From Owenia fusiformis (lineage: Eukaryota > Annelida > Polychaeta > Sabellida > Oweniidae): DNA of 64,000 nt. The notes beneath the pieces were generated by a model, which was not told the origin of the DNA, did no database searches, and was given only the letters and a program-made list of their open reading frames with translations. The position numbers and the translations under genes are program-made. Of the stretch, positions 3,413 through 63,700 are shown piece by piece (position 1 is the stretch's first letter; every line of letters begins with the position of its first letter). The DNA is taken from contig CAIIXF020000008.1 of the NCBI GenBank assembly GCA_903813345.2, forward strand, positions 5,587,341-5,651,340, given 5' to 3'.

Positions 3413-3579
3413 TAATTGGTTTTATTGCCTTGAATTCACTATTGGGTATTTGACTGTACAGTAAAGTTGACTGGCTTGGTTCCCAATCATTTAAAGGCTA
3501 GTATTCTTAAACCATTAAAGGGTGATGTTATTAACACATGGGTTACAGATACTATGTCTATGACTGTGTTTCTTTTCAG

Positions 3580-6500
3580 ATATCACTCCAGTAAATGTCA
3601 TACAGTATCTGACCTTGGTCAGCTATGTTACTTTGGCTACAGAGGAGAGGCATTAGCCAGTATCACAGATGTTTCCCAGACACTTGAGGTGTCCAGTCGT
3701 CATAGAGACAGTAAACAAACCTACAGTACCACCTTCACCAGTGGTTGCCAGGGACAGGTGTTGAAATGTAGCACACAGCGCCCAAGTTACGGCACAACCA
3801 TCACAGCACATAATATATTCTATAATCTACCAGTAAGGAGAAAAGCCACAAATGCTGTACTGGAAGTTGAAAGAATTCGGCAAAGACTCAAAGCTATTGC
3901 TTTGATCCATCCTTCAGTGTCTGTTTCACTACGTAATGATGGATCTGGGCAGATTGAGCTTCATACTCACAAGAGTAAATCAGTATTAGGGGTGTTTACT
4001 CACATTTATGGGCAGGAAAGATCAAAGGAAATGGTTGAATTAAACTACGAATCTGGGAACATTAAGGTTCAAGGTTTTGTTGGAAAGTCTGGACACAACA
4101 AGAAAAATATTCAGCTTATCTACATAAATAGCCGCCTGGTATTAAAAACAAAACTTCATAAACTTGTAAACAGATTGATTTCAAGATCTCTCATTACAAA
4201 TGGAAAATATGATAGTCCAAAACCTGACCAAATTGATACAACAGCAGCAATTAAATATGGTGTATTTGTCATAAATATAATGTGCCCGCACAATAGCTAT
4301 GATATCACATTTGACCCTGCTAAAACACATGTTGAGTTCCATGATTGGGATGGCATAATGATCTCTTTGGAGGAAGCTGTGAATGGCATGTTAAAAAGGG
4401 AAAACCTATTGTCTGTAAATTCTACAGGAGGCATTCTAACTGGAGATATTGAAGATGGCGAGAACATTAAGAATGATGGAGCGAAGGATTGGGTATGCAG
4501 CTTTGAAATAGGAAAGGAGATACATACTGAAAATATCCGAAATAATCTTCAGTCCAAAAAAGTACATAGAATGAGCAACTCTGCTCTGATGTCAAGTACA
4601 CCTCAACTATTGAAAGCTTCAGAACCAGTAGCATGTGTGACCTCAGACCAAGTGTGCAACACTTTGGTCCACTTTTCTGAAACCTCAAGTGAATTTGACA
4701 GCACAACAAAGCAGTTAGTAACACCTTTTCAGTCTTCCGAGCACATATGTGAAACACTGATGCAAAATGTCAAAGACACACCTGTTCAAATTGATGAGGC
4801 TATAGGGGAAAAATTCGAAATTGACTTTCATGAGGATCCCTTACTGTCTACTGAAAATACCCTACCACTCTGTGAAACCCAAGCCACCAACACGGAAGAG
4901 GCAATTCCTTTGGCTCAAATGCATACATCAACTAAAATTCCTCAGTTGACACAGAGTCCAATGAACTCATTTGATGCTTTAGGGCTAGGATCGTATAAAT
5001 CTCAGAATCAAAGAATCTGTCAAAGTTCATTGGACACCATGGATCTTGATTATTTGATATCTCCACATGGGCATGAAAATATGAACATCTATGAAGATGA
5101 AATGGGAGATGAGACTGAAATGGATGATGCTGAGACAGAAACTGATAATGTTGAATGTCAAGGTTATATTTCACCAGGGTCCTCCATAAGAGATGTTAAT
5201 ATGAGACACTCACATACACAATCAAGAAACACAAATACTCAAATGAGATATCCATATACACAACTTGGATACTCAGATAAAGAAACAAGAGACTCGAACA
5301 CAGGATTAGGAAACTCTATACAGAGTAACTCAGACATAAAAACAAATCTCTTGAATAAACAACAGAGAAACTCGAATACACAATCAAGACACTCATATAA
5401 ACAAGTGGAACACTCAGATGAATTAATAAAACCAATAGATGGGAACACTATAATAAATAGTGAATATGATAAACAATCCTTGAAAAGAAACAGTCCTAAA
5501 TTAAAATGTAGTGTGGCTGTAGGATTATCTATGCAGTTTCAATCTTCAGCTTGTTGTAGTAGTAGATTGAGCAAGCCAGACTCTGCTCAAATGCAATCAC
5601 TTGGAGATTTCCGAAAGACAAATGAAAATGTAAAACACATATCTAGTACATCAGATAAAGATAGAACTCACCCAACATTTCAATATGTTAAAGGGCTTAC
5701 ACCATTTTTAAAGATAAGAGAAAGATTGTCAAAATCACAAGGCAGTTATTTTAATAGAGTTCCTGAATCTAACAAAGGAGCACAAGATCGAACTGCAAAA
5801 ATAATTGATAGGAGGAGCAATAAAGGTGAAAATCAAATGGAGAACATTGAGGATGTGATGGCTAACAAAGAAGACAGACATAACAATAACCCTAGGGAGT
5901 ATAGAAAAAGAAGAAATCAAAATCAAAACAGCATTGGAGTAAACAGATTTGGAATTGGAAGCAGGGATAGGTTTACAAGTAAAACTAAATCTCACCAACA
6001 TAGTGATGATACATTGAGTAGTTGCAACAACAGTGATGACGTTGGTTCCAGGAAAAAGATTTCATTACTGAACAGAGCCAATGAATCCAATATTTTGAAC
6101 CATAGGTCTGAAGATATTGAAAATGAGTATGAAAAGATACCTGAATCTTACTTAAGGAAAGAATCAAGAACTAGACATAATGAAGATAATGATAAAGTTA
6201 TTAGTTGTAAAGCCAGCAAGAACCAATGCATTTTGAATGAGCAAACAATGCTACATGTTAAACCCCTGATAGAACTCTACAACTCTACAGTCACTACAAG
6301 AGGTTCACACAATCAGTCAGATCATAGACATCCAAAGACAACATCTCATAGAGGACAACAACATGCTGGTAATCGAACAAGCACAAAGAGAAGAAAAGTT
6401 CTAACTAACGAATCATTCTTTCAAACTGCTCAAGATATTAACTTTGAGGAAGCAATGTATAACTTGACAAAATTGAAAAAGCAGTCATCCAAACCTAAAG

Positions 6501-9500
6501 CAAATAAGCTGCTAGCTGTGGATTTTAGCAAGTTGCCAGTTACTAACCATTCATGCCAAACACTGGCATGTATGACAAAGAACTATCCAAAGCCAATTAT
6601 TTCAACTATTGCCAACTTAAAAACAGCATCAAATAATTCAGACAGCCAAGCTCCTGGAACGTACAGCAAATCGTCAAACTGTGATGATGGCACAAAACAC
6701 CTTCACGCTGATCCATGTAGCAATTACCAAACAACATTTCATCAAAAGCTAGCTGAGCCATTAATTGACACTGTTGGTTCCAGTAACCTCACTGTTGGAG
6801 AAACTGATGTGCCAAATGATTTCCAAGATGTATTCCATCTGCCTCCTGATGGAGAGACTCACAATAAATTCTACAATTTATCAAAACAAAGTTTTTATGA
6901 TCGTAATGACACATTTCCATTGGCACATGAAAGTACCAAATCATTTCCCTTTACCAGTGAAGTTGCAGAGTCATTTCACCTAAACAATCTAAGTGCATTT
7001 GGCAGTGAAACAATGAATACCAACAGTGTCTTATCAAAACTAGTATTTGACAATGAAAATAGCCTACTTAACAATGTCATATCTGGACACTGTGAAACCA
7101 TCTTCCCTGAAAGAGTTAATGTTGTTAACATTACGGACCCAGTAGCAAGAGAAGAACCTCCACTCAGTGACCCTGTAGAAAGCCATAAACCTTCTCTGAC
7201 AAAATCAGTAGAAAATCAGGAACCTGTATTAACAAAGCCAGTAGAAAGGCCAGAACCTCCAGAACCGGTAGAAATACAAGAGTGTTCACCAGTAAGCTCA
7301 TTAAAAAGACAGAAACTTCTTTTAACAAAGATGAAAGAAAGACAAAAAACTACCCCTACCATGTATGTAGAAAGAGAGGAACCAGAAGTAACAAATTCAG
7401 TAGAAAGGCAAGAACCTCAACTTCCTTTTGAAATATACAAGGCTTTTCCAATCCAAGCAACACAAGGGTTCAGCTTTATAGCATTCCCAAGTCAACAAAC
7501 ATCTCAGGGTTTTAAGACTGTGGAACATGAGAGTTCTATAGCAGAGAATGGCAGTTTCACTGACTGTCAAGGTCACCATTATCACCAACAGGACCAGCAT
7601 CAGCAACAGGGCCAGCATCACCAACAAGACCAGCATCACCATCAGGACCAGGATCACCAACAAAACCCACATCACCACCAACAACAACTGCATCTCCAAC
7701 AAGATTGGAATCACCAACAAGACAAGCATCACCAACAAGATAAGCATCACCAACAAGACCAGCATCTCCAACAAGATCAGCATCTCCAACAAGATCAGCA
7801 CCACCAACAAGACCAGCATTACCAAAAGGACCAGCATAACCAACAAGACCAGTATTTCCAACATGATCAGCATCCCCAAGAAGATCAGCATCACCTACAA
7901 GACAAACATCATCAACAAGGTCAGCATCCCCAACAAGGCCAGCATCACCAACAACACCAGCATTACCAAAACCACCATCACCAACAAGATCATCATCACC
8001 AACAAGACCACCATCACCAACAAGATGAGCATCACAAACAAGACCAGCAAAACCCCGAAGATTCCCATCTCAAGCATCTTCAAAATCAGAATCCAAACAA
8101 ACATGCTCAAGTCATAGAAAGTGAAAATGTGATCGATAAAATTGTTGTTCCAATTGATCCAGGAAAGGCATTAGGAGGGTCTAATGCCAGTAGTAAAGAT
8201 GAAAAGGTTTCTGTTGATGATGCATTGAATGATAAAGACAATAAACAAGTTGTGAATGGTGTGAATAATCCATTGGATGATATAGTTGATGATTGTACAA
8301 CAACCAAGCCTGTTGTAAATGAAGCCAGTCATAGTAAAGGCCAGGCCACATGGATCTGTCAGCTAGAACCTAAAACAGGTTAGAGGCACACTTTTTGTTG
8401 TTTTTGCTTTGTGTATCCTCTTTAAAAAGTATATTGTAGGTTTATCTCAAAGCTCATGTAGCTTGGATGATTATGGCATAGATGTACAAATGGGGAAAAT
8501 AAAGAAACATTTAACTTGAAGGAATTCTGAATTTTAATAAAATCAATATCATAATTTCAGGTCGGACCATGTATGTTAATTTGGCAACAGGACACTCATC
8601 ATATGAAAGACCATTGCTCTCAAACCAGTCATTACATAGTTGCCCAAGTAAGTAGCACTGTCCTAGCAAGTATACCTTGGGTTGTCGAGTTGGCCGAGAG
8701 GGCTTGAGCGCCAGCACGTTCAAGCTAGGCGAGTAGGTGCCGTAACCACTAGGTTGCGAGTTCGAGACGCGTTTGCTCCTTGAGTTTATTCATTCATTGA
8801 TTAATGACTTGAAGTTGAAGATTGAATAATATAAATTTCACAGTTGCATTTTTTTCTGTATGTCATCCATTTGATGTACTATGATGTGTCTACCATTTTT
8901 TTAACAGAGAAAGTGAAATGTTAGGCAATTTTCAATTATTTAGTTTTTATATTTTCCAGATAGGCCTTTATTTTCGATAGTAGAGAACAAGTCAATGCAG
9001 CGCCTACTGACCCACAATGCAGTAGAATTTCTACCGAGATCTAAAGGAGAACGTAGTTTTGGAAAGAAAATACAATGTGGAATAAACAATGCTAAAAGAA
9101 ATCAGCTTAAGCCAAACAATGGAACCACAAGGGCTGACATTATAGAAGGAAAGATAGGCAACAAAAGCATCAAAGACAACAACATAGAAGATCAAGATGA
9201 TTGTAGTGACAAAGTGGATGGGGAATGTGAAAAGGAAAATCTTCCTATTTCACCAGGTCCACAGTGTATTAAGTCCATGCTGGATGAACATGTTGCTGAG
9301 ACTGGTGTGCAAGATACAACAAAATGGAGATCAAATACAGGTTTGGTTTTTGATTGGTTGTTTGTTTATTGTTTGGTAAGGTCATGACTCGAGATTTGGA
9401 CTCGGCTAAAGCTTAATTATTCAAGATACCCATGTAATTGAAAAGGCAATTCCAACAAATTGAAAATGCGATGTGATTTGTTTTAATCATGAACATATAA

Positions 9501-41100: not shown

Positions 41101-44100
41101 TTAAATTATTTTCCAAGCATTGAAACAAATGCGTACACTAAGTTGAAAATGAAGAATGTTGAAAATCTGATATTTTAACCTGATGTTCCATAAAAATCTT
41201 TCACTCTGTTTTTAAAATGCATTGGAGGAACACTACAGAATGGTTTTAATTTAATATTTTAACAAGCATTACTTATAATTGTTGTAATCTTGATGTCATG
41301 TTACATGTGATTTGTTAAACACAGAATTCTAAAATCCACCACTGCAATCGCAAATACATACACACAAGTATGAAATATAGATGGCATACTAGTTAGCTCC
41401 ACCCCTCCAATTATAATATAAATATGAAATTACGAAGTTCATGATCTCTGTTTTACTTTTTAGAACACATTCAGTGAAGGGCCGTGAAGAGCAATACAAC
41501 TATATAGAAAATGTGCATATAGATGGCAGCACTTACAGCTTTGTTGCCATGGATGCATGCCCAAAGCCTGGACCAAAAAGACCTTTCAACTTCTTTGGAG
41601 TCTTATCAAATGTAAGTTTGAGGCTACCACTTCCTTAAAGTTCTATATCCATGGCTATGGGTCCCTTTACTGGTCATTTAAATGGCATAACTTAAATATT
41701 TGAACCTGCAGTTAGTAAGTCCTGCAATTTCGCCCACTACGTAAAGTATGTCTGAATTTCTCAGATATCACTTATGCTGTACATATAGAAACAGAGAATT
41801 GATGAATTACAGTAAGGAGTTTTGATTTGACATATATGCGTTTTCATATATATGAAATCAATAACTGGTGTATGTAAAACTCCATGTATTATATTGATAT
41901 TATAAATTACTTTGTAGGAATCTCTGACAGAATTAGAGGAACTATCCAGACAGACTAAGAACAGCAACATGACAATCTGGTTTGGTCATTACCCCACATC
42001 AGTCATTGTTAGTCCATACCCAGGTGTTCGCCACTTTATGAGGTAACATATTGCTTCTATTTTCAAATTGAACCTCTAAAGTTAGTTGTATTGAAGCAGT
42101 TCAAACTAGTTTTTTTTTCTTTTTCAAATATAGTTTATTCCAATTTAGGTTTTTACGATACAGAAATACAATGATACAATTAATTACAATAATGTATAAT
42201 GAGTTATGTTTTAATCATTTTCCATTTGTTTTTAAAAAATACATTTTTACGAGTACAGATTTCAAAATTTAAAGTTTTAATAGTGCCTTCAAAATTACGC
42301 TAAATACCATTATTCAGTTCTTGAATATATGTTTTATATATAACAAATGACACAATACTTATAAAATAGTTTAAAAATTCAGTATGATTGTCATTTCCAT
42401 TGTAACCAATTATCAATTTTCTGTAAGTTACTCTTAACCCTGAGATATTATAAATATGTTTCCAAATGTTTTGAGAATATGAGCATGAAAATAACAAATG
42501 TTTCAAGGTACATAATTCATTACATAAACTACATTTGTAGGTTTCACTTTTACCAAATATATATAAATCACTAAGGCTAGGAAGAATATTGTTGATTATT
42601 TTAAAGTTGGAATTACCTATTTTCTTTTCTTTACAAATTATTTTTGTAGAGAAAAAGTTTTGCCAATTTATTTCATCATTGGCTTCATAGCAAAACTCTT
42701 GTTCCCATTTCCTTTTCATAAACCATTTTTCCGATCGTTTGTTATTTAATACTTTTTTTATAATCTCATGTGGCACAGATAATACTGATGCTGCATAAAT
42801 TAATTTTGGAATTGCCAGTGATTTAATCACTGTAACTTTGCCAAAAAGTGTAAAGTATCGGTTCTTCCAGCTGTCTAATATTTTTTCTACTTTTTTTACT
42901 CTATCTTCCCAGTTTAATTCATAACATCTTTGTTTGTTGTGTCCTAAAAAGATTCCTAAATATTTGATTGGTTCATCAGTAAAAGTTATATTTTCACATT
43001 TCTTTTCAAAGTCCTTATTTTTTCCAAGCCAAATGCCTTCAGTTTTTTCTATGTTTAACTTCAGACCAGAAAATTTTGAGAAATTGGAAATAGTATTAAG
43101 AGCATTTTTCAATGACTCTTTATCTTTAATGAAAAGTGAAGTATCGTTCGCATATTGGGACATCTTATATTCTTTACCATCAACAGTTATACCTGATATA
43201 TCATTATTTTGCTGAATTGCTAAGTTCATAACTTCGCAACATAAAATAAATGCCATTGCGGAAACGGGGCAGCCCTGCCGACATGAGCGTTCAACATCAA
43301 TATTTTTTGATAACCATCCATTTTGCTTAATGTTTAAGAAAGGTTTTTCATATAAAAGTTTGAGCCATTTGATAATCTTATCACTGAATTTAAATTTTTT
43401 CAACGTTTCATACATAAAATTCCACTCTATACTATCCAACGCTTTTTGGAAGTCAAAACTAGTTAGTGATTTTATACTTGTTATTTATCACCAAAAGTTA
43501 AGACATATTGTTATAATCTCCAACTTTTTTGTGGATAGTGTAAAATAAATTATATGCAAAGTTGATATGTCTACTTTCAGAGGAGCAACAGCCTACCTGT
43601 GTGGCCATCTACACACATTAGCAGGTCTTGTTCCCAACATGTACACCATGCAGAAGTCTGGGGGCCTGGAATTAGAGTTAGGAGACTGGAAAGACAATAG
43701 AAAGTAAGAGTCTACCTGTACATTGAGAGGTCCCAAACTCATCACATGCTCTTCTCTACTAAGCTAAAAACATTTCAGTGTTTTTTAAACAATATAAAAG
43801 TAAGGTCCATTCATTTATTCATTTATTATTGATAGAATATTCTACCATTCTACCGGGACTACTGGGAATTGTTCTAGCCCTTTTCTGTTTTAATTTACAC
43901 CAATATTGTACCACTGAAGAAATGAAGCAAGCTGTCAGTTTTCCTATGTCTGTGTTACCGATGGTGCAAATAGCCCAAATCATATAATAATCTGTGGCCT
44001 TACTTAGTATGTACATATTTTTTAGTAGACAATTTTGGAGGTTTTGCATTATTCTGTATGTACATCAAAATATTGTTCTTACACATTTAATAATAATGCT

Positions 44101-47100
44101 AATTATAGGTTCAGGGTGCTGGCCATTGACCATGATCTGATGTCCTTCACTGATGTCAGTCTGGATGATTGGCCCATCATTCTAGTCACCAATCCCAAGC
44201 ACGCCCTTTTTACTACTCCTCTACATGAGCCAACTGGCAGGATACGTCAATCATCACATATAAGGTACTCTTCATTAAGATCATAAGAGCGAGTAAAAAA
44301 GAGAAATCACAAGGAATTCACAGGCTTGTTCTTAACACTCTGAATTTGCTTATACTTCTTAATACCAGAGAATGAATCTTGAGAATGAGAAAAAATATGG
44401 AAAAGACAGAGAAGAATTTTAGTCCATGTTCTATGAATTCCTGATTCACATCTGATCTAGTCCAATATCTAAATATCCTGAATCTCAGCTCTAAATTTGA
44501 TAGGCCTCTGTCTGGGATCATCCTCTGAGCACAGGGCTCCAAAATCCAGAATATCTTTTTCCGTTTTCTTAAGAAGGAGGTACAGATTCTAGACACCTGC
44601 TTCTGTGCTTAGGAGGATGGTGTGGGACAACCCTGATCAATGATTGTGATATGCAAAGTGTTTTACACGTTTATGTCTTTTTTCAGGATACTAGTCTTTT
44701 CAAATAGTGATGTTGAGAGTGTCACTGTCTCTCTTGATGGAAAATACCATGGACTAGCTGTTTCTTCCTGGAAACCGTTATATGTGCTACCATGGCAACC
44801 ATCAGATTTCTCAACTGGAGTACACGAAATAGAAGTAACAGTAAAAGTAAGTGTGACAGCTAGTGTGAATGTTAGAGTAAGTGTGACAATTAGAGTGTGA
44901 CATTCAGGAGTATGTACGTTAACCTTCATAGCTAGATAGGCATTCAAATCTTAGAATGAATGTGCCAGTTTGAACAAATTTCCAAACCAATATTAAATTG
45001 CTTTTCCAGGACATTCTTGGCAATGAGAAGACCATAAAACAGCCATTCTCTGTGGACAATACCAAGTTATCATTTGATGTGCTTCCTAGGATGATACTCA
45101 TGGCCAACATGGCTTCAGTGGTAAGTTAATAGTTAAAAAGATTCTTTTTTCTGAATGGATACATTGACATACTCCAATTACATTTAAAATACTTGTACAA
45201 ATACCTATACCTCGTAGATCAAGAATGATTTAGAATGTAAATCCAATTATTATATCACAGCAGTTACTAAGTGATTATTTGTATTGAGAGAAAAAAAATT
45301 GTTGAATTTTTTATAAATAATGAGCTTTCTGCATTGTGCAATTTTGTAGCAGAAGAAAACATCCTGGCTGTCAATTAAATACATATGCATCTTTTTGAAA
45401 TTAAAATACCTAGCTGTGTATTTGTTCCCATTTAATTGTTTGGACCAATGGAAGCCTGTGAATTTGAAAATATTACAGTTTGTTTGAGAAATCATATCTG
45501 TTATAGACATTGGTGAAAAGGAAGGAACACTCCTGAAATTGAGACCTCTACCATGAGACGATGTACCACATCTCATCAATATGTTCATCATTGTATGATC
45601 CCTGTAGCTAAATACCTTGCCCTGGGATCATTGGATCAACCCATTTATTGTATATTTCAGATGCAAGTGCTGTTGGGTGCAGTGTACATAGTTTACATGT
45701 CTATTATATATTACAGATGGAAGTGCTATTTGGTGCAGTGTACATAGTTTACATGTCCATTATATATTTCAGATGCAAGTGCTATTTGGTGCAGTGTACA
45801 TAGTTTACATGTCTATTATATATCTCAGATGCAAATACTATTTGGTGCAGTGTACATAGTTTACATGTCTATTTTATATTTCAGATGCAAGTGCTATTTG
45901 GTGCAGTGTACATAGTTTACATGTCTATTATTTTTATATTTCAGATGCAAGTGCTATTTAGTGCAGTGTACATAGTTTACATGTCTATTATATATTTCAG
46001 ATGCAAGTGCTATTTGGTGCAGTGTACATAGTTTACATGTCTATTATATATACCAGGTGCAAGTGCTATTTGGTGCAGGGTACATAGTTTACATGTCTAT
46101 TATATATTTTAGATGCAAGTGCTGTTTGGTGCAGTGTACATAGTTTACATGTCTATTATATATTTTAGATGCAAGTGCTGTTTGGTGCAGTGTACATAGT
46201 TTACATGTCTATTATATATTTAAGATGCAAGTGCTATTTGGTGCAGTGTACATAGTTTACATGTCTATTATATATTTCAGATGCAAGTGCTATTTGGTGC
46301 AGTGTACATATTTTACATGTCTATTATATATTTCAGATGCAAGTGCTGTTTGGTGCAGTGTACATAGTTTACATGTCTATCATATATTTCAGATGCAAGT
46401 GCTGTTTGGTGCAGTGTACATAGTTTACATGTCTATCATATATTTCAGATGCAAGTGCTGTTTGGTGCAGTGTACATAGTTTACATGTCTATCATATATT
46501 TCAGATGCAAGTGCTGTTTGGTGCAGTGTACATAGTTTACATGTCTATCATATATTTCAGATGCAAGTGCTGTTTGGTGCAGTGTACATAGTTTACATGT
46601 CTATCATATATTTCAGATGCAAGTGCTGTTTGGTGCAGTGTACATAGTTTACATGTCTATCATATATTTCAGATGCAAGTGCTGTTTGGTGCAGTGTACA
46701 TAGTTTACATGTCTGTCATGTTGACCCTGAGGTTCTACTGGAGACACATAGCTAGTAAGTAAAAAATAAAAATATAGATAATGTGTGTCTTTCTTGGTGT
46801 TAATTATCCCACCGAACGAAGTTCGAGAGGGATATAGGAAAGCTGTCCGTCCGTCTGTCCGTTCGTCCGTCCGTCCGTCTGTTTGTCCGGGCGATAACTC
46901 AAATACCGTTTCACGGATTTGATTCAAATTTTATAGGCTTATGCCTTATGGGTGTAGGACCTCTGCTCGAGAAGGAATTTTCAATATGGCCACTGAATTC
47001 AAAATGGCCGCCATTTTTCGTAAAAAATGTAATCTCTAATAACTCAAATACTAGTTTGCAGATTTGGTTCAAATTTTATATGCTGATGCCTAGGGACAAA

Positions 47101-50100
47101 GGAGTTTCGCACAAAAAGAGATTTTCAAGATGGCCACTTAATTTCAAAATGGCGGCCATTTTTCGTAAAAATATGTAATCTTTGATAACTCAAATACCAG
47201 TGAACGGATTTGGTTCAAATGTTATATGATGATGCTTAGGGACACAGTAGCTATGTTCGACAAAACATTTTCAAGATGGCCGCTTAATTTCAAAATGGCG
47301 GCAATTTTTCGTAAAAAACGTAATCTTTGATAACTCAAATACCAGTGAACAGATTTGGTTGAAATTTTATATGATTATGCCTTGGGACACAGTAGCTCTG
47401 TTCAAGAAATAATTTTCAAGATGGCGGCTGATATTCAAGATGGCGGCCCATATTCATAATAAAAAACATAATCTTTGATAACTCGTATACCAGTGAACGG
47501 ATTTGGTTCAAATTTTATATGCTGATGCCTAGGGACAAAGGAGTTTTGCACAAAAAGAGCTTTTCAAGATGGCCGCTTAATTTCAAAATGGCGGCCATTT
47601 CTCGTAAAAATATGTAATCTTTGATAACTCAAATACCAGTGAGCGGATTTGGTTCAAATTTTATATGATGATGCTTAGGGACACAGTAGCTATGTTCGAC
47701 AAAACATTATCAAGATGGCCACTTAATTTCAAAATGGCAGCAATTTTTCGTAAAAAAACATTATCTTTGATAACTCAAATTCCAGTGAACATATTTGGTT
47801 GAAATTTTATATGATTATGCCTAGGGACACAGTAGCTCTGTTCAAGAAATAATTTTCAAGATGGCGGCTGAATTTCAAGATGGCGGCCCATATTCTTAAA
47901 AAACGTAATCTTTGATAACTCATATACCAGTGAATGGATTTGGTTCAAATTTTATATGATGATGCCTAGTTCACCATGGTATAAACTAACTTTGTGCCAA
48001 ATTTCATGCTTCTATCACAAAGTACACAAACATTTCAACATTTACACTAGCTATAATAAGCATAATATGTTTTGTTCGGTGGGATTTGCTACTCCGTGGA
48101 GTTGCTGTTTTTCTAGTTTGGATTGTAGATATTTAAGCCCTGTTTTCTGAGGATGTGATGATGTTTTGCCTATGTGTGAGGGGCTTTTATTTCACTATTA
48201 CAGTCTATGTAGTTTTAAGAAGATGTAATGTTGTCATAGTGTCAAAAATTAGTGCTTTCTAGAGAAGTAATGAGTAAAAATCAATCATTTTTATTTATTC
48301 CAATTATAATATTTGCGAGATTGCTAAATGTTATTGAATTATATTACAGAACTCTTGCATCAACTTTTCTAAGCACTCTCATCTGTTCATAGTTCATCTG
48401 ACTAGTAATAGACAGGTGGCTTGAAAGGCTAGATTTGCATTACAAATTGTCTTATTGTTGATTTAAAATATTATTTAATTCATGTATTTCTATTCTAGTC
48501 AGTGCAAGTCTTCCAAGCTGCCTAGTGAACTGCCTCAAGGTTTGGTCAACAAGGCTCTGTATGCTGGCTAACACTGACAAGATCTTTTATCCATTGATGA
48601 TATTCAACATTTACATTGCAGTTGGTAAGTTAATGCAGCAATTTTTATTTTATCATTTGACATTTAGCATGACATCTTTCCTCAATTTTAACACTCTTAC
48701 ATTAGATTGGTGGCAGATAAAGATTTTAGCTGAATTGTCAACTTAAAAATACTAAAGCATAAATGCCTGCTATCTTTCTAGTGTGTTTGTCTTCTAAAGG
48801 TAGTAATTGATTTTTATGTCTTGGCAACTCAACTCAAGTTAACCCAACCTATATGGAGGCCATGTTGAACGCTTGTAAAGTCATGTGTCATCTTCATGTA
48901 AGCTTTATACATGAGGTGAATACTGTTATTTTTGAAGTATTTCAGCTACATGTGCCTGTCCAGTGTTCCCCAATGCCTGGCACAGTAGTTCTATTGTGTT
49001 CTTGCCACGTCTTGGTAAAATGTCTAGTAGCTTCTCAACTTTCTTCTTCCTTGTTATTTGAGCCTCTATTTCATCCTTTAGGTCAGGGGTCAACACTCTG
49101 AAATATGCAATTTTTGATTATTGAGCATGGCACAATTATATAACATGATGCAATGTACATAATATGATGCAATGTATGTAACATGATGCAATGTATGTTA
49201 TATGATGCAATGTATGTAACATGATGCAATGTTTGTAATATGATGCAATGCATGTAATGCATGATGCAATGTATTAACATGATGTAATGTATGTAGCATG
49301 ATGTAAGGAATGTAACAACATGATGCGATGAATGCACGAATGTAACATGATGCAATGAATGTATGATTGAAACATGATGTAATGTATGTAGCATGATGCA
49401 ATGTATTAACATGATGCAATGTACATAATATGATGCAATACATGTAACATGATGCAATGTATGTAATACGATGCAATGTATGTAACATGATGCAATGAAT
49501 ATAATATGATGCAATGCATGTAATGCATGATGCAATGTATTAACATGATGTAATGTATGTAGCATGATGCCATGTATCTAACATGATGCAATGAATGCAT
49601 GCATGTAACATGATGCAATGTTTGTAACATGATGTAATGTATGTAGCATGATGCAATGAATTAACATGATGCAATGTTGTAGCATGATGCAATGTATATA
49701 ACATGATGCAATATAACAGATGAAATATATGTAAAACGATTCAATGTTTGTAACATGAAGCAAGAATGCATGATTGAAACATGATACAATGCACTTAACA
49801 TGATGCAACAAATGTAAGATAAAATGATAATCATCCTATCTAACATAAGACCTTGCATTTGATATAGAAACATAAAAAGATAACAGATTGCAAGAATCAC
49901 TCCTTGTTTTATACATATATGTACTTTAGTTCTTAGTCTTACATAATACTGTACATGGAATATTCTTACCCCAATTGTAATAAGTGACTCAGCAATGATC
50001 CAGGTTCAATCTCATCCCCCAGTGTGGCATAGTTGCTTCGTATCAGCTCTCTGTCTTCAGGGGGCATCAGCATATCTAAGCCTCCACCCTCAGTACTTAT

Positions 50101-53100
50101 GTGGTCTTCAATGAGGTCTTTAAGCTTCAATATATGATCCAAAGCTTCAGACTTCTTCTCAAAGATATCATCCTTGGTAATGGTGTGGTTAAGTTTCTGC
50201 AGGAAGGTTACAGCATCGACGTAAGTGACGCTTTCCTCAATACGATGTTTTTCTAGTTTCAACATGTGGTTGATACTAGCATCCCTAGATGCTGGGAGGT
50301 CTAATACTGTTTGGCCAAACTTGTTGGAAATGTTGACTCTGGCTTTATTCTGAAGCAGGATCTTCACGAGTCCTGGGTGCATTTCTTTCACTGCATAATG
50401 AAGGGCAGTGAATTCATCTTGGTCTTTGTTGTTCACGATGGATTTCACTTTCTCATTCTGTAGTAGATGCTCCAAAATCTCACATCTTAATGACTCTGGT
50501 AAATTTCCAACCACACACAGCACATGAAGAATTGTTTTTCCAGTTTTGTTTTGGACTGAGACATCACAACCGGCAGTGAATAGGGTATCTAACTTTGGGA
50601 TTGCACTTTTCCCATAATATAGGACAGCTAAATGGAGTGCAGCATATCCACTATCATTCAGTTCATCTAAGTTGCTTACTTTGCCACTTTCAATGATCAG
50701 TTCTAAATATTTAGGTGATCTACATTTCGCTGCTTCATGAAGTGCATTATCTCCATCCTCATCAGCGATGTTTGGATCAATGTTTTCCAGGGATATTAAA
50801 TATTTGAAAAGTTCTGGATGATCGTTCATTACTGTTCGTATAAGTACAGTTCTGCCTTGCTGACATTTAGCATTTACATCACAACCAGCTTCAACAAGCA
50901 TCTTGGAGACCTGCAAAATAGCAAAAGAATCATAAGTTCACTTTTTTTTATGTCACCACCACAAGTTGTGACATAGTGTTATAGTCTCAAACTTTTTTGT
51001 GGATGGTGTTGGGGATTAGGTGGTTTGTCTTTGGTGGTTTGTGTTTGGCATCTGTAACATATGGCAGGTGGTGACATTTTGCATGTTAATGACTTGTGTT
51101 TTCCTTACCATGTATATGTAGTATTAACATATGAATAAGGATGTTTTGTCTTGAACATTTTGAAGTAAGTTTAGTGTTTATTTTCTATACTAGACCAGAT
51201 GTTATTCTCATTCAGTTAGATAAAATATCATAAAGGATTTTGTGTCGTGAAATTTATTTGTCTTTACCTTCAGTTTTGATTCTTCTGTCATTGACAAATC
51301 GCTGCTAGTATTGTACAGTGGGGTGTCGTTGTATCTGTTATGATTATTGACATCACACCCTCGCTTAATGCATAACTCTATGACTTCTAAAGGGCTTTGA
51401 CTGCAAATAGCATGATTCAATATATTCGTTCCTTCCTCATCTGTGTACATTATATCACTTCCACCTCGTAATAATTCCTGGCACATTTCTAACTGAAGAG
51501 AGGATTTACCAACAGCCAAATCTATGACATCTCCATAAGGATCTGATGCAATATCAACCTTACTATCAACAAGTAACCTTATCATATCAAGATTGCTGCG
51601 GTAAACAGCATGCCTTAGAACTGTCCATTCTCTTTCATCAGTGGCATTAATGTCAAACCCAGCATCAATCAGTGATCTTGCTATATCAATATCATTGTGT
51701 TTTACAGCGATGTGCAGTACAGTGCATCCATCAGAGTCTCGCTGGTCTTTGTCTAGAGAATTTTTCTGTCTGCTCAATATTTTTTTCACTCCGTTAATCT
51801 TGCCCGCTTGAACTGCGTCAAGAATTGATGTTTCATCACCTAGATAACATAATGATCATGAATTATTCAATGAAAACTGACGAAACAAGGGTTTCCCTGT
51901 AAAGCGGTCACATAATATGTTTGCAGGGGTAGCATGATCTTATAGTACAGTGATTCATTGGCCATCTATTAAACAATACAAATTATGACAATTCGTATTA
52001 CAAATATGGTTGAAGTTTTAACATACCAAATTCATCATATTCCTCTACTTTCCTTGCCAGATCGATGCGTCCAATTTCTGTTAACAGCTTTGTTAGATAA
52101 GACACATCACTCTTTGAAACAGTTTCTTTAGAGACGAGAAGCTCAATTAGCTCTAGACCTTTGGCAGCTCCCTCTAGAATCCCTCGCTCAAACTTAGGAC
52201 CCCTTAGTAGCATCTTCAAACTTGCAATGTCATCTGCAATAAAACAACCTTGTGGATTGTGTTTGAATCAAAAGATAACAGTAAAAGATAACAGTAAGTG
52301 ATCCATTTGCTCACCATCCATTTCCATAGGTTAAGTTTAACCAAATAAAAATATTTTATTGGACTTAATAGTCTAGATAGAGATGCATAAGCATCCTTGG
52401 TAAATCATAAAATGACTCATTTGAAATATTAAACAAGTCATCCTGAAAACCCGTCATGTTAAGGAAAACCATTTAAAGGATGATTCATATGTGATCACCA
52501 CTTATTTAAGATCATTATTTTTATCATATCTTGAAGAATCATAGAACTATGTAATATTCATAATGCCGTCTGAAATATGTAAAGTGTATACTATACTGTA
52601 CATAAATGACCAATATCTACCATTAGTAGTAAATATTATTGTCGCAATAGAAATGAATAGAAGATTGAAATTCTTACCCTCTAAAAGATCATTTCCAATG
52701 TGGGTGATCAGTCTGTTGAATGGCTCAATTTTAACCTGTGTTGCCATGCTTCTGGATTGCACTAAAGATAAAATAAGAATTATTATCCAGTACTTGGACA
52801 GGTTTCACAAATCTTAAAGGTTAAAACTTAATAACACACTGAATGACCTTAGTTTTAATCCAAATGACCTAAAATCATTTTTGATGCGTTCATAATTGAT
52901 AAAAGTAACTATTTCCATATTATTTTCAATGAAACCTTTGGGGGCACCTTCAGGTACATTAGGTAATGGCTCCTTTTCAAATTTGACAAACAATTTTCAA
53001 AAAACATATTTCTAGATGTACTTTTACATCTAGATTTCAAATATGACATCACTTTGACTGAGACAGGTGATCACTAGAGAGAGATGTTCACTAAGACAGG

Positions 53101-56100
53101 TTTTACTGACAGTAATGATATTTCATATTTACAAAAAATATCCTGAACTTTATATGTATTGCTATCTGTACAGTGAATACTACAAACACATTTGAGCTGT
53201 GTTCCTTTTAGCTGTTTAATTATGTATCTATGTCTAGTCTTGGACTCGAACTTGGTCTCATTGTAATATATTAATAGTATGTCTCAAATATCACTCATTT
53301 TATGCTGTTTGATTTGATTATTGCAGTTAAGAATAAGATCTATATCAAACTTACCAGTTAGCTCTTTTCAAGCTGCTCGTGTACACAGATATGTAGTCTG
53401 AATATAAATGTAGTGTATACAGGAAGTGGATGTCTAAATTATCTCGTGCAGTGACTCACTCTCAAAGTCAGCTGTTGTATTCCAGACTAAATAAACATAA
53501 TACATGCACAGTAAAACCTTTATATCTGAACACCACTCTCAAGTTAAACACACACAAATGTGAAGAATTTTTAACACCACTCTTAAGTAAAACACCCCAC
53601 ACACAAATGTGAAGACTTTTCTGAAAATGTGAAGTTTTCATATAAGAAAACCTGTCTAATATGAACACTTTTCATAAAATATCACAAGTTTGATATGAAA
53701 TCACACAAATATTTTTTCTTGTTTTTATGATGTTCGAGCTTTGACAGCTCAAACCTTTCTTTCTGACATAACTAAGTGGTCATTTGAAATAGGAATTTGT
53801 TGAGAATTTGTGTTCACCCTTCTTTAAAATCCAGAATTCCATAAATTAGATTGAATTAAATGTGAACTTACCCTAATTAGAACACTTTTAGCCGATTCCT
53901 GGTAATGTTGTCAGGCTTTGTTGTGTGTTGTTTTGATGGATCAGTTTGTGTAGTGGTAGTAGTTGGCTGAGTCTGTGGTACTATTCTAGACTAAAGCAGA
54001 TTGTGTGTTAATTTGTTCGAATGAGGAAGTTTTATTAATGAAAACTGCAGGGTTAGCTGGTTATCCCAACCTATCACTGCTTTTCAGTTGAATCAACAGG
54101 ATGCCTATTAATCATAATGTAAAGATAATTCACCAACCAGCAGTCAGGCAAATAAAAATGAGGACAAGAGGATGATATCAGCCTTAAAAAGTACTTTGAA
54201 TCATGTGGGAAGGGGGATTGGCCTAATATAAACATTTCACAATTTTTGGAATGGACTTAAGATTACCAAGTTTTACTATGTGCCAAAAAGTGCACACCCA
54301 AAAAGTACACATACTAATTTATAACCTACAGATTTAGATATATGACACAAGTTGACTAAAAAATTTTAAGGTTTTTCATGCCTTTCCATGATCTTCTGGG
54401 TAGATATCACTGAAATCTCCAATCCCACTCTATTGTTTAAGACAATGGTCATTTCTATAAATGTATTGTTTAAGGATTTAAGCCCTGGACTCAATGCATT
54501 TGAACCTAGAATGAAGAAATCCTAGTTGTGAACTGATTATTATTCCTAAAACGTGTTGTTTCAAAGTTTAGGAAACAACGCCTGAGTGGAATGAATCAGC
54601 CACAATGCATTGAGTCTATGCTTTTCACACATTGCAAAACATTTTATACAATATCACTTAAAAGACACAAAATAACTTCAGAAAATAATTTCCCTTTTTC
54701 AAGGAAACTCTTTGCAAGGGTCAGGTTGTCACTTTGGCAACCACGCATTACAATATGTTTTATGTATATATCACTTAAAAGATATGAATTGACTTAAGAT
54801 AAGAATTTCCTTTTTTCAAGGAAACCTTTTGCAAGGGTCAAGTTGTAACTTCTGTTTGTTTCAGTCAGCATCATGGATTATAACCTTGACAACCATACAA
54901 CACTCACCATTAGACCTGCATAACATGTAGCTTGTTATTCCCTATGATATTATTTATAGATTTTTACTGAACTATGAAATTGATCAGCTTATTGGTTTCA
55001 TTAGTTTCGATAAAGTCTAAAAATGACCTGGGGTGCATTGGAGTAGTATATTGCAATACAATTATATGAAATAGTGTGTTCTGATTGGCTGGAATTGGAC
55101 ACACCATACCTGTTTGAATACTTTTCATTTGCTCTTATTTGATTATCCCAATGAACGAAGTTCGGTAGGGATATAGTGAAGCCCTCCGTCCGTCCGTCAG
55201 TCCGTCCGTCCGTCCGTCCGTCCGGAAGATAACTCAAATATTAGTCGACGAATTTTCTTCATATTTGGTGGAAAGATGTATATTGATGAATAGTTTTACG
55301 CAAAAAAAAATTTTTTCAAGATGGCCGCCGCTTTAAAAATGACGGGACTTTTTCGCAAAAATCATAAATTTTTCATTCTAAACCAAAGTGATCAATATTA
55401 TTGTTTGAAATTTTGGTAGTATATTCGCAACATCTATCCATTTCACATATATTCCGTGTTTTTCATCCTGACCCCCAGGGGCCGTGTATGGGGGGTCAGG
55501 AAAACAGACATTTTCGCTAATTTTTAGATCTTTCTTAAGTATAGCTTTATTATACTCAAATGAAAGGCAATTAAGAGTAGATTGCAAATATTGTATCTTT
55601 TTTCTGATTCGAGCCTCGTAAAATTCAAAATGGCCGTCTTATGTACGATTTCGCAATAATTTTTCGATCCCTTCAATGTATGGCTATATAATACTCAAAT
55701 TGAAGGAATTTTGGAGTAGATCAAAATTATGGTATTATTTTTCAGATTTTACCTCAGAAAATTCAAAATGGATTTTTTCAAGATGGCCGCTGCTTTAAAA
55801 ATGACGGGACTTTTTCGCAAAAATCATAAATTTTTCATTCTAAACCAAAGTAATTTATATTATTGTTTGAAATTTTGGTGGTATATTCGCAACATCTATC
55901 TATTTCACACATATTCCGTGTTTTTCATCCTGACCCCCAGGGGTCGTGTATGGGGAGTCAGGAAAACAGAAATTTTCGCTTATTTTTAGATCTTTCTGAA
56001 GTATAGCTTTATTATACTCAAATGAAAGGCAATTCAGAGTAGATTGCAAATATTGTATCTTTTTTCTGATTCGAGCCTTGTAAAATTCAAAATGGCCGTC

Positions 56101-60791: not shown

Positions 60792-63700
60792 TTATAACTC
60801 TTCTTTCTGATCACTGTCTTGTTTCTTAATTAGGTTTTGAACAGTTTCACTCCAGAATTTCACACTGTCATCTCTGAATTTATTTAGAATGACTGAACGA
60901 AGTCTAAGACTTATAGCTTCATGATTGTCAGTGCTAAACTGTGGCCATTCCAACAGATTACCTCCATTTGGGTTGCTGGAAACAGAAATGGAGATTCCTT
61001 CACATATTGCAAGAGTTGATTTTATTTTTTGATACATTTTTAGCATAGATATATAATAGTAGGAGGTTATCCATATGATAAGTTATTTAATCTTTTTGTT
61101 TCATCCTGCTTGGTGGGAATTTTTTATGATTACATTATTCCTCATGAACATGGATTGTTCTTTGCACTTTATACAGTGTTTTATTTAAAACAATCCCCCG
61201 AGGGTATTAGTTCAAATATTGGAGCACAAAATTACAAGTTATCAAGTTGAATATGTAATAATGTACAATTAGTCTTACCCAGTCTTCCCAAAGTTTGTCC
61301 AGTATTTAAGCATCTGATTCTCAATGATCACATCATTATCGTCCCAAAGAAAAGTATCATCAGTGTTCATTGGGGACTTTGAAATGCCAAACATGTAAAA
61401 AATGTCATCCCCATGATCTGCCTTGATATATGCTGGGCGTCCATGGAATCTCAGATGCAGAGGGGAGTGGCTGAGCTCATATACAAAAACATCTGCTCCA
61501 ATTTCTGAAAAAGTAAAATTCTGAAGGTCTAAGGTCAAGGTTATCAAACTAGATCACAAAGAGTATCATCTAAGTTTCTCAAAGTTCTAGACTACCAATC
61601 AATATTTTTATTATTCTGCTTGATAAATCTATGTGTTGTGTATTTTAAACATGGTTTTTTTCATTTATTTTTAATTAAAACCAGGTGCTGACATGTTGTC
61701 ATTTTAATGCCTTGTTAAAATATGCAAGTGAAAGCCAAATCAACGTTTTAAAATTCCTTTAGATGGACGGAGGGGTCAAATTATCCATGACTGTTGATAA
61801 TTTGATACCAACCTTAAATGTAATTTTACCTCTCATTTCATTAGAGTAAGTAAGTAAGTAAGTAAGGTATTTATAAGAGTCTCACGCTGTACAAATTAAA
61901 ATACATTTTGATACTTGACATTTATGTGCGTTTGAGCGCAGCGACATTCGCTCATAAATGATTTCTTTAGGCGTTGTGTAAATGGAACAGGTGTACGAGT
62001 TGATGTTGAGTTGTTTTGCATGAGTGCATGTTAGAACGGAGTGTAACTTCATTCTGAGCTTTGCCACGTATCGAGACGCACTTTATTTTAATAAAATTAT
62101 TATGTTTTAGAACATTTACATGTCTTTGATTGATCGCGTACCTTTTCCGCATTAATTTGAGGTTTTTAATGGCCGAGATCAATTAATTTCGATAAATGTT
62201 AGTTTATATTTCTTTGTTAAGTCTTAACGTTCACATTTAGAGTGTTCTTTCATGCTATAAAGGGAATCATGTCATAGTATCGTTACCTGCGTACTTAATG
62301 TGACTTGTATTTACCATGTTCATAACAACATGCTGTTACAGAGGCTACTTTTTCAATAAATGAAAGTGGCAAGCTCACTTCCTTATAATTTGATATCGTT
62401 GTTCTGTTGCATCGAGCAAAGCAAAGAAAATTGATTAAAACAACAGCTCAGCTGGCTCCGACTTATGAGAGGCTTAGAATGGTGGAATAATAGACTTTAT
62501 GTTTCAGCACTATAGATATGTAAGTAGTAAGTATTAATATGAATAGGGAATTTACCTTTCAATGTATTTGCAGTCCTGAGCACTGGTATAGACAGTTATA
62601 TGCAAGTAGTAAGCGTTAATATGAATATGGCATTTACCTTTCAATGCATTTGCAGTCCTGAGCACTGGTATAGACAGTTATATGTAGGTAGTAAGTATTA
62701 ATATGAATAGGGCATTTACCTTTCAATGTATTTGCAGTCCTGAGCACTGGTATAGACAGTTATATGCAAGTAGTAAGCGTTAATATGAATATGGCATTTA
62801 CCTTTCAATGCATTTGCAGTCCTGAGCACTGGTATAGACAGTTATATGTAAGTAGTAAGTATTAATATGAATATGGCATTTACCTTTCAATGTATTTGCA
62901 GTCCTGAGCACTGGTATAGATAGTTATATGTAAGTAGTAAGTATTAATATGAATAGGGCATTTACCTTTCAATGCATTCGCAGTCCTGAGCACTGGTATA
63001 GACAGTTATATGTAGGTAGTAAGTATTAATATGAATAGGGCATTTACCTTTCAATGTATTTGCAGTCCTGAGCACTGGTATAGACAGTTATATGCAAGTA
63101 GTAAGCGTTAATATGAATATGGCATTTACCTTTCAATGCATTTGCAGTCCTGAGCACTGGTATAGACAGTTATATGTAGGTAGTAAGTATTAATATGAAT
63201 AGGGCATTTACCTTTCAATGTATTTGCAGTCCTGAGCACTGGTATAGACAGTTATATGCAAGTAGTAAGCGTTAATATGAATATGGCATTTACCTTTCAA
63301 TGCATTTGCAGTCCTGAGCACTGGTATATAGATAGTTATATGTAAGTAGTAAGTATTAATATGAATATGGCATTTACCTTTCAATGTATTTGCAGTCCTG
63401 AGCACTGGTATAGATAGTTATATGTAAGTAGTAAGTATTAATATGAATAGGGCATTTACCTTTCAATGCATTCGCAGTCCTGAGCACTGGTATAGATAGT
63501 TATATGTAAGTAGTAAGTATTAATATGAATAGGGCATTTACCTTTCAATGCATTCGCAGTCCTGAGCACTGGTATAGATAGTTATATGTAAGTAGTAAGT
63601 ATTAATATGAATAGGGCATTTACCCTTTAATGCATTTGCAGTCCTGAGCACTGGTATAGACAGTTATATGTAAGTAGTAAGTATTAATATGAATAGGGCA

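What the first reader, a model, noticed from the sequence alone, without database searches (positions are those of the whole stretch)
48926..52747. A protein joining a death effector domain, ankyrin repeats and a CARD
The fifth exon (48926-49097) is not part of any long frame and is separated from the rest by a 700-bp satellite, so a simple ORF search would give a DED-less, CARD-less ankyrin protein. Joined by consensus splice sites with exact phase, the model yields DED (with RxDL), nine or ten ankyrin repeats, and a CARD split by the last intron. DEDs usually recruit FADD/caspase-8 proteins and CARDs recruit caspase-9, Apaf-1 or innate immune partners. One adaptor carrying both, spaced by a protein-binding ankyrin stack, would link two death-fold networks. 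I do not know of a characterised protein with this order.
Basis: partly seen in the sequence, partly recalled or inferred. Interest (0 to 1): 0.87.

Follow-up and report, generated by a model that had tools for sequence, protein, structure and literature searches.

The report
Worm DED–ankyrin–CARD adaptor gene
A marine worm gene encodes one protein that carries two different cell-death docking domains at opposite ends of an ankyrin-repeat stack, so it may join two normally separate death or immune signalling pathways.

Summary
On the minus strand, five coding exons (52747-48926) splice with GT-AG sites and matching phases into 653 residues: DED (10-90), ankyrin stack, linker, CARD (570-652). 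Both death-fold domains pass Pfam's gathering scores. The window lies on the Owenia fusiformis (annelid, not mollusc) scaffold that carries P0001, a deposited partial protein identical to residues 1-609. An independent annotation thus already crosses the satellite-filled intron 4, though it stops inside the CARD. A second gene in the genome (33% identity) has the same ankyrin-linker-CARD part and the last two introns in the same places and phases, but no DED that I could find. Of 18 DED and 43 CARD matches in the genome, only this DED-CARD pair lies within 600 kb. Matches that look like DED-caspases, CARD-caspases and DED-bearing RIG-I-like helicases offer possible partners. Best reading: a bipartite death-fold scaffold adaptor. 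Its function is inferred. I found this domain order in no paper or protein search made here; those searches are limited. New variant of a known kind.

The parts
52678..52747 (-). Coding exon 1 (start codon; first helix of the DED)
   Evidence: donor GTAAG, phase 1
52027..52233 (-). Coding exon 2 (rest of the DED, with RxDL at residues 79-82)
   Evidence: 44.1 bits to DED on its own
51268..51839 (-). Coding exon 3 (first part of the ankyrin stack)
49970..50910 (-). Coding exon 4 (rest of the ankyrin stack, helical linker, first part of the CARD)
49098..49969 (-). Intron 4, phase 2, holding a tandem repeat at 49133-49763
   Evidence: crossed by P0001
48926..49097 (-). Coding exon 5 (second part of the CARD, stop codon)
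   Evidence: 36 bits to CARD on its own
52748..53355 (-). Possible 5' UTR: acceptor before 52761 and a donor at about 53354 (untested)
   Evidence: consensus sites only

Best explanation
A real, spliced Owenia fusiformis gene encodes a bipartite death-fold scaffold adaptor. Most likely the N-terminal DED docks onto DED assemblies (FADD-like proteins, DED-caspases or DED-bearing sensors), the C-terminal CARD joins or seeds a CARD assembly (a CARD-caspase or another CARD signalling protein), and the ankyrin stack between them holds a client or keeps the protein shut until bound. It would turn a DED signal into a CARD signal, or the reverse. Shown: gene structure, domain identity, a deposited protein across the disputed intron, a related ankyrin-CARD gene without a detected DED, and matches placed like DED-caspases and CARD-caspases in the same genome. 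Inferred: every binding event, the direction of signalling, the outcome, and the origin of the DED as a module joined at a phase-1 intron to an ankyrin-CARD gene (loss of the DED from the other copy is the alternative).
For: Both domains over cut-off, no enzyme domain found. DED resembles c-FLIP (29.4 bits whole chain, 24.0 best stretch), FADD (26.4) and caspase-8 (24.4); CARD best matches RAIDD (35.2 bits). P0001 joins DED, ankyrins and the start of the CARD in one chain. The C3 gene aligns collinearly through ankyrins, linker and CARD with two introns shared. The DED-CARD pairing is unique within 600 kb among 18 x 43 matches; about 0.008 such pairs within 10 kb expected at random. DED-caspase-like and CARD-caspase-like placements exist.
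Against: No binding, expression or localisation data. P0001 ends inside the CARD, so the last 44 residues rest on the genome, the profile and the C3 gene. No orthologue in another species was found, so conservation of the whole architecture is unproven. The DED model is of low confidence and the complete CARD was not folded.
Confidence: 0.5

Rival explanations
1. A Caiap-like cofactor: the CARD self-oligomerises and the ankyrin stack binds and stabilises an active caspase; the DED only adds a second docking site.
For: Caiap, a CARD plus 16-ankyrin protein of zebrafish, works this way (PMC5662874, abstract and passages). The Owenia genome has an ankyrin-CARD gene without a detected DED, so the ankyrin-CARD part can stand alone.
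Against: In Caiap the CARD is N-terminal and there is no DED in the description I read; the order here is reversed. No sequence test of common descent with Caiap was made.
Confidence: 0.2
2. A decoy: with two docking domains and no enzyme domain it caps DED or CARD assemblies and damps caspase activation, as c-FLIP or CARD-only proteins do.
For: c-FLIP chains are the best solved-structure matches of the DED; no catalytic domain found.
Against: The FADD match is close behind (26.4 against 29.4 bits); the c-FLIP score is a whole-chain score (best stretch 24.0). Sequence cannot tell an activator from a decoy.
Confidence: 0.2
3. An artefact: two genes or a broken gene wrongly joined across the satellite.
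For: Intron 4 holds a satellite of about 630 bp; the deposited protein is marked partial.
Against: P0001 is one chain from the DED into the CARD; frames are open and phases match; the C3 gene keeps the same exon 4 to exon 5 join.
Confidence: 0.04

Closest known systems
[quoted passage not shown] PMC5662874, abstract and passages)
   Same: Ankyrin repeats and a CARD in one protein without an enzyme domain
   Different: CARD is N-terminal, 16 ankyrins, no DED described; a vertebrate protein by that paper's account
FADD, RAIDD and ASC, two-domain death-fold adaptors (partly recalled; FADD and ASC described in passages)
   Same: Two different death-fold domains in one adaptor; nearest solved-structure matches include FADD for the DED and RAIDD for the CARD
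   Different: None of them, as far as I recall, has ankyrin repeats or the DED-CARD pair
Cnidarian DED-TRADD-N-ankyrin proteins (PMC8195603, passages)
   Same: N-terminal DED and ankyrin repeats
   Different: TRADD-N domain between them; CARD not mentioned in the passage
Owenia C3 gene (6685931-6683794, minus strand)
   Same: 33% identity (156 of 474 positions) through ankyrins, linker and CARD; introns 3 and 4 in the same places and phases
   Different: No DED found in the joined protein, in the fetched stretch, or on C3 in the genome-wide DED search

Membership tests
DED family (Pfam PF01335) | Profile score over the gathering cut-off | tested here: met
   50.1 bits, cut-off 35.9
   RIDL at residues 79-82
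CARD family (Pfam PF00619) | Profile score over the gathering cut-off | tested here: met
   51.9 bits, cut-off 23.9; the C3 gene 57.3 bits
DED and CARD families | Six-helix bundle fold | tested here: inconclusive
   P0001 model: helices at 8-17, 23-34, 42-58, 65-76, 80-89 but pLDDT blocks of about 40-69; CARD incomplete in P0001
Ankyrin repeat proteins | Profile score and solenoid fold | tested here: met
   Ank_2 164.1 bits, cut-off 27.3; confident stack and ankyrin structures in the rows shown
Bipartite death-fold adaptor | Two different death-fold domains in one protein and no enzyme domain | tested here: met
Bipartite death-fold adaptor | Homotypic binding to an upstream and a downstream partner | not testable with these tools
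   Needs binding assays
Caiap | N-terminal CARD followed by 16 ankyrins | tested here: not met
   CARD is C-terminal, DED N-terminal, about 11 ankyrin helix pairs

The most novel reading that the evidence does not exclude
In this annelid the RIG-I-like receptors carry DEDs, and this protein is the converter that turns their DED signal into CARD assembly on a MAVS-like protein or a caspase: an antiviral wiring unlike the direct CARD-CARD contact of vertebrates, made by joining a DED module to an ankyrin-CARD gene.
Probability: 0.1. Interest if true: 0.8.

Novelty: new variant of a known kind. Interest (0 to 1): 0.52.

Why it matters
One scaffold with both a DED and a CARD would couple two networks that, to my knowledge, are joined elsewhere by separate proteins. 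The related gene without a detected DED gives a natural comparison for how gaining or losing a domain rewires death signalling. It also shows that the deposited protein misses the second half of the CARD.

Tried and rejected
Mollusc origin: rejected; P0001 is from Owenia fusiformis and its contig length equals that of scaffold C8. Two-gene reading: judged unlikely from P0001 and the C3 gene. Orthologues: the DED-region search (237 candidates) and the residues 490-653 search (1,649 candidates) each returned only P0001. The full-length search scored 7,996 candidates, found 149 and listed 120; in those 120 rows I saw DED (PF01335) only for P0001 and CARD (PF00619) for none. These searches need shared five-residue words, so distant orthologues can be missed. 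Structure: P0001 aligned with 22 other proteins (of the 120 listed) gave a confident ankyrin stack, a low-confidence DED and an incomplete CARD; the 50 rows of the fold search shown (of 1,413 matches) are, by title, ankyrin-repeat proteins or complexes that hold them. The spliced 653-aa model was not sent for folding because it is not one of the sequences that tool takes. Papers: eight of ten searches bore on the architecture, two on the Owenia genome. The search for DED-ANK, CARD-ANK, ANK-CARD, ANK-DED, DED-CARD or CARD-DED gave one paper, Caiap; the search with oyster gave none. Passages of the Aplysia immunome paper show no such protein (PMC9334734). A paper sought on the origin of RIG-I-like receptors is not held. 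Relatives of the DED inside Owenia: best match L011 at 20.2 bits, below FADD's 26.4, which speaks against a special tie to the helicase DEDs. Locus translations read minus-strand matches on the wrong strand; redone.

Full report
What is there. The minus strand of 52747-48926 holds five coding exons; the four introns between them are GT-AG with phases 1, 1, 0 and 2, and the frame gives 653 residues. Pfam finds a DED at 10-90 (50.1 bits, cut-off 35.9), many ankyrin matches and a CARD at 570-652 (51.9 bits, cut-off 23.9). Single exons score less than joined pieces: exon 2 alone 44.1 bits to DED against 56.1 for the joined 98-aa piece; exon 5 alone 36 bits to CARD against 53.5 for the joined 91-aa piece. 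The two programs differ, so this comparison is rough. A tandem repeat fills 49133-49763 of intron 4.

Is it one gene? The protein database holds P0001, 609 aa, 'unnamed protein product, partial [Owenia fusiformis]', identical to residues 1-609. It reads 12 residues past the last junction and ends without a stop inside exon 5. Its contig length, 39,264,044, equals that of C8, in which the window lies. In the passages I saw of the genome paper, gene models combine RNA-seq assemblies, curated junctions and Augustus, and 31,678 of 31,903 filtered transcripts had RNA-seq support (PMC9977687). That P0001 comes from that gene set is inferred, and I saw no reads.

The related gene. A search of the genome with P0001 (136 matches; 72 of 304 candidates scored) listed three exons of the gene itself and then a match on C3 (E 6.6e-35, 35% identity to 269-593). 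The many other matches are ankyrin stretches of 26-42% identity that I did not follow. Just downstream of the C3 match lies a CARD match. The C3 locus joins into a 560-aa protein; BLASTP aligns it to residues 218-651 at 156 of 474 identities (33%), through ankyrins, linker and CARD, and TBLASTN aligns the earlier part from residue 97 as well. Its CARD scores 57.3 bits. Its two introns match introns 3 and 4 of the window gene in place and phase, which is independent evidence that exon 5 belongs to the gene. No DED was found there: none in the joined protein; no DED match on C3 at E <= 1; and an Owenia DED profile run on 502 open fragments of the fetched 20-kb stretch gave nothing below E 0.14, while it found the window's DED exon at 1.3e-23 among 459 fragments (that exon was among the sequences the profile was built from, so the control is weak). 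A diverged or distant DED exon is not excluded. The DED was gained by one copy or lost by the other; the phase-1 intron at its end suits exon shuffling, which is inference.

How rare is the pairing? The genome gives 18 DED matches (10 over cut-off) and 43 CARD matches (40 over cut-off) at E <= 1, exon by exon, among the candidates scored. Within 1 Mb there are two DED-CARD pairs: the present gene, and one 684 kb apart on opposite strands. About 0.008 ordered same-strand pairs within 10 kb would be expected if matches fell at random.

Possible partners. Two DED matches start 6.5 and 7.4 kb before caspase matches on C7, and a weak DED match (E 0.06) starts 5.0 kb before one on C2; CARD matches start 0.8, 2.1 and 14.2 kb before caspase matches on C1. 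Two of those three CARD matches are short or weak. These are placements on one strand, not proven genes. The three best DED matches precede helicase frames: DEAD and ResIII over cut-off in 3 of 3, Helicase_C in 3 of 3, RIG-I_C over cut-off in 2 of 3. They look like RIG-I-like receptors with a DED.

Mechanism. The DED resembles c-FLIP, FADD and caspase-8 chains (29.4, 26.4 and 24.4 bits; c-FLIP's best stretch 24.0); the CARD resembles RAIDD (35.2 bits). Within Owenia the nearest DED of 17 others compared is that of L011, a helicase-linked one (20.2 bits), and the nearest CARD of 8 compared (of 43) is that of L006 (30.0 bits). With no enzyme domain found, I read the protein as a scaffold adaptor that couples DED and CARD assemblies, the ankyrin stack being the client-binding or regulatory part. 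Caiap is the nearest precedent for ankyrins and a CARD acting on a caspase: its ankyrins bind the active caspase and its CARD self-oligomerises (PMC5662874, abstract and passages). Sequence alone cannot say whether the Owenia protein activates, stabilises or damps. The antiviral converter is the boldest reading that remains; the weaker match to helicase DEDs than to FADD speaks against it.

Novelty. DED with TRADD-N and ankyrins is reported from cnidarians (PMC8195603, passages), CARD with ankyrins from Caiap, and wide shuffling of death-fold domains from amphioxus (PMC2575513, passages) and Apaf-1 relatives (PMC2246300, passages). The order DED-ankyrin-CARD turned up in none of the eight paper searches on it, judged from listings and the passages read, and in none of the three protein searches beyond P0001, whose CARD is cut. 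Both are limited: open-licence papers, and word-based matching of single sequences. I rate it a new variant of a known kind.

Noticed in passing
L009, L010, L011 with L028, L029, L027 (G000 C7:10187469, 10209894, 20143381): The three best DED matches of the genome precede DExD/H helicase frames; RIG-I_C passes its cut-off in 2 of 3. They look like RIG-I-like receptors that carry a DED.
   Followed up: partly
L006 (G000 C8:31002559-31002804): One 408-aa open frame joins a CARD (55.8 bits) to a Ras-family GTPase domain (122.5 bits).
   Followed up: partly
L017 (C9:26773326) and L020 (C4:3689185): L020: DED (30.0 bits, below cut-off 35.9) before an NB-ARC match (28.7 bits, over cut-off) in one frame. 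L017: DED (33.9 bits, below cut-off) in a frame that ends in a glycine-rich kinase-like stretch by eye; Pfam found no kinase there.
   Followed up: partly
L005 and L008 (G000 C3:16995140 and 16970499): Long frames with two CARD matches each; Pfam on L005 adds an NHL match (28.4 bits). L008 was not scanned with Pfam.
   Followed up: partly
window 44029-44897 (+), perhaps on to 57807: Weak matches to the TMEM62 Ig-like domain (16.3 and 23 bits, cut-off 27) on the plus strand; exon-like plus-strand frames lie on both sides of the DED-ankyrin-CARD gene, which may sit antisense in an intron of that gene (inferred; the frames at 48462 and 57568 had no Pfam match).
   Followed up: partly
window 3434-8380 (+): Open frame of 1,649 codons with a DNA mismatch repair match (56 bits in its first 400 residues); MLH3-like by recall.
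   Followed up: partly
window 61278-61553 (-): Carboxylesterase-family exon (41.3 bits).
   Followed up: no
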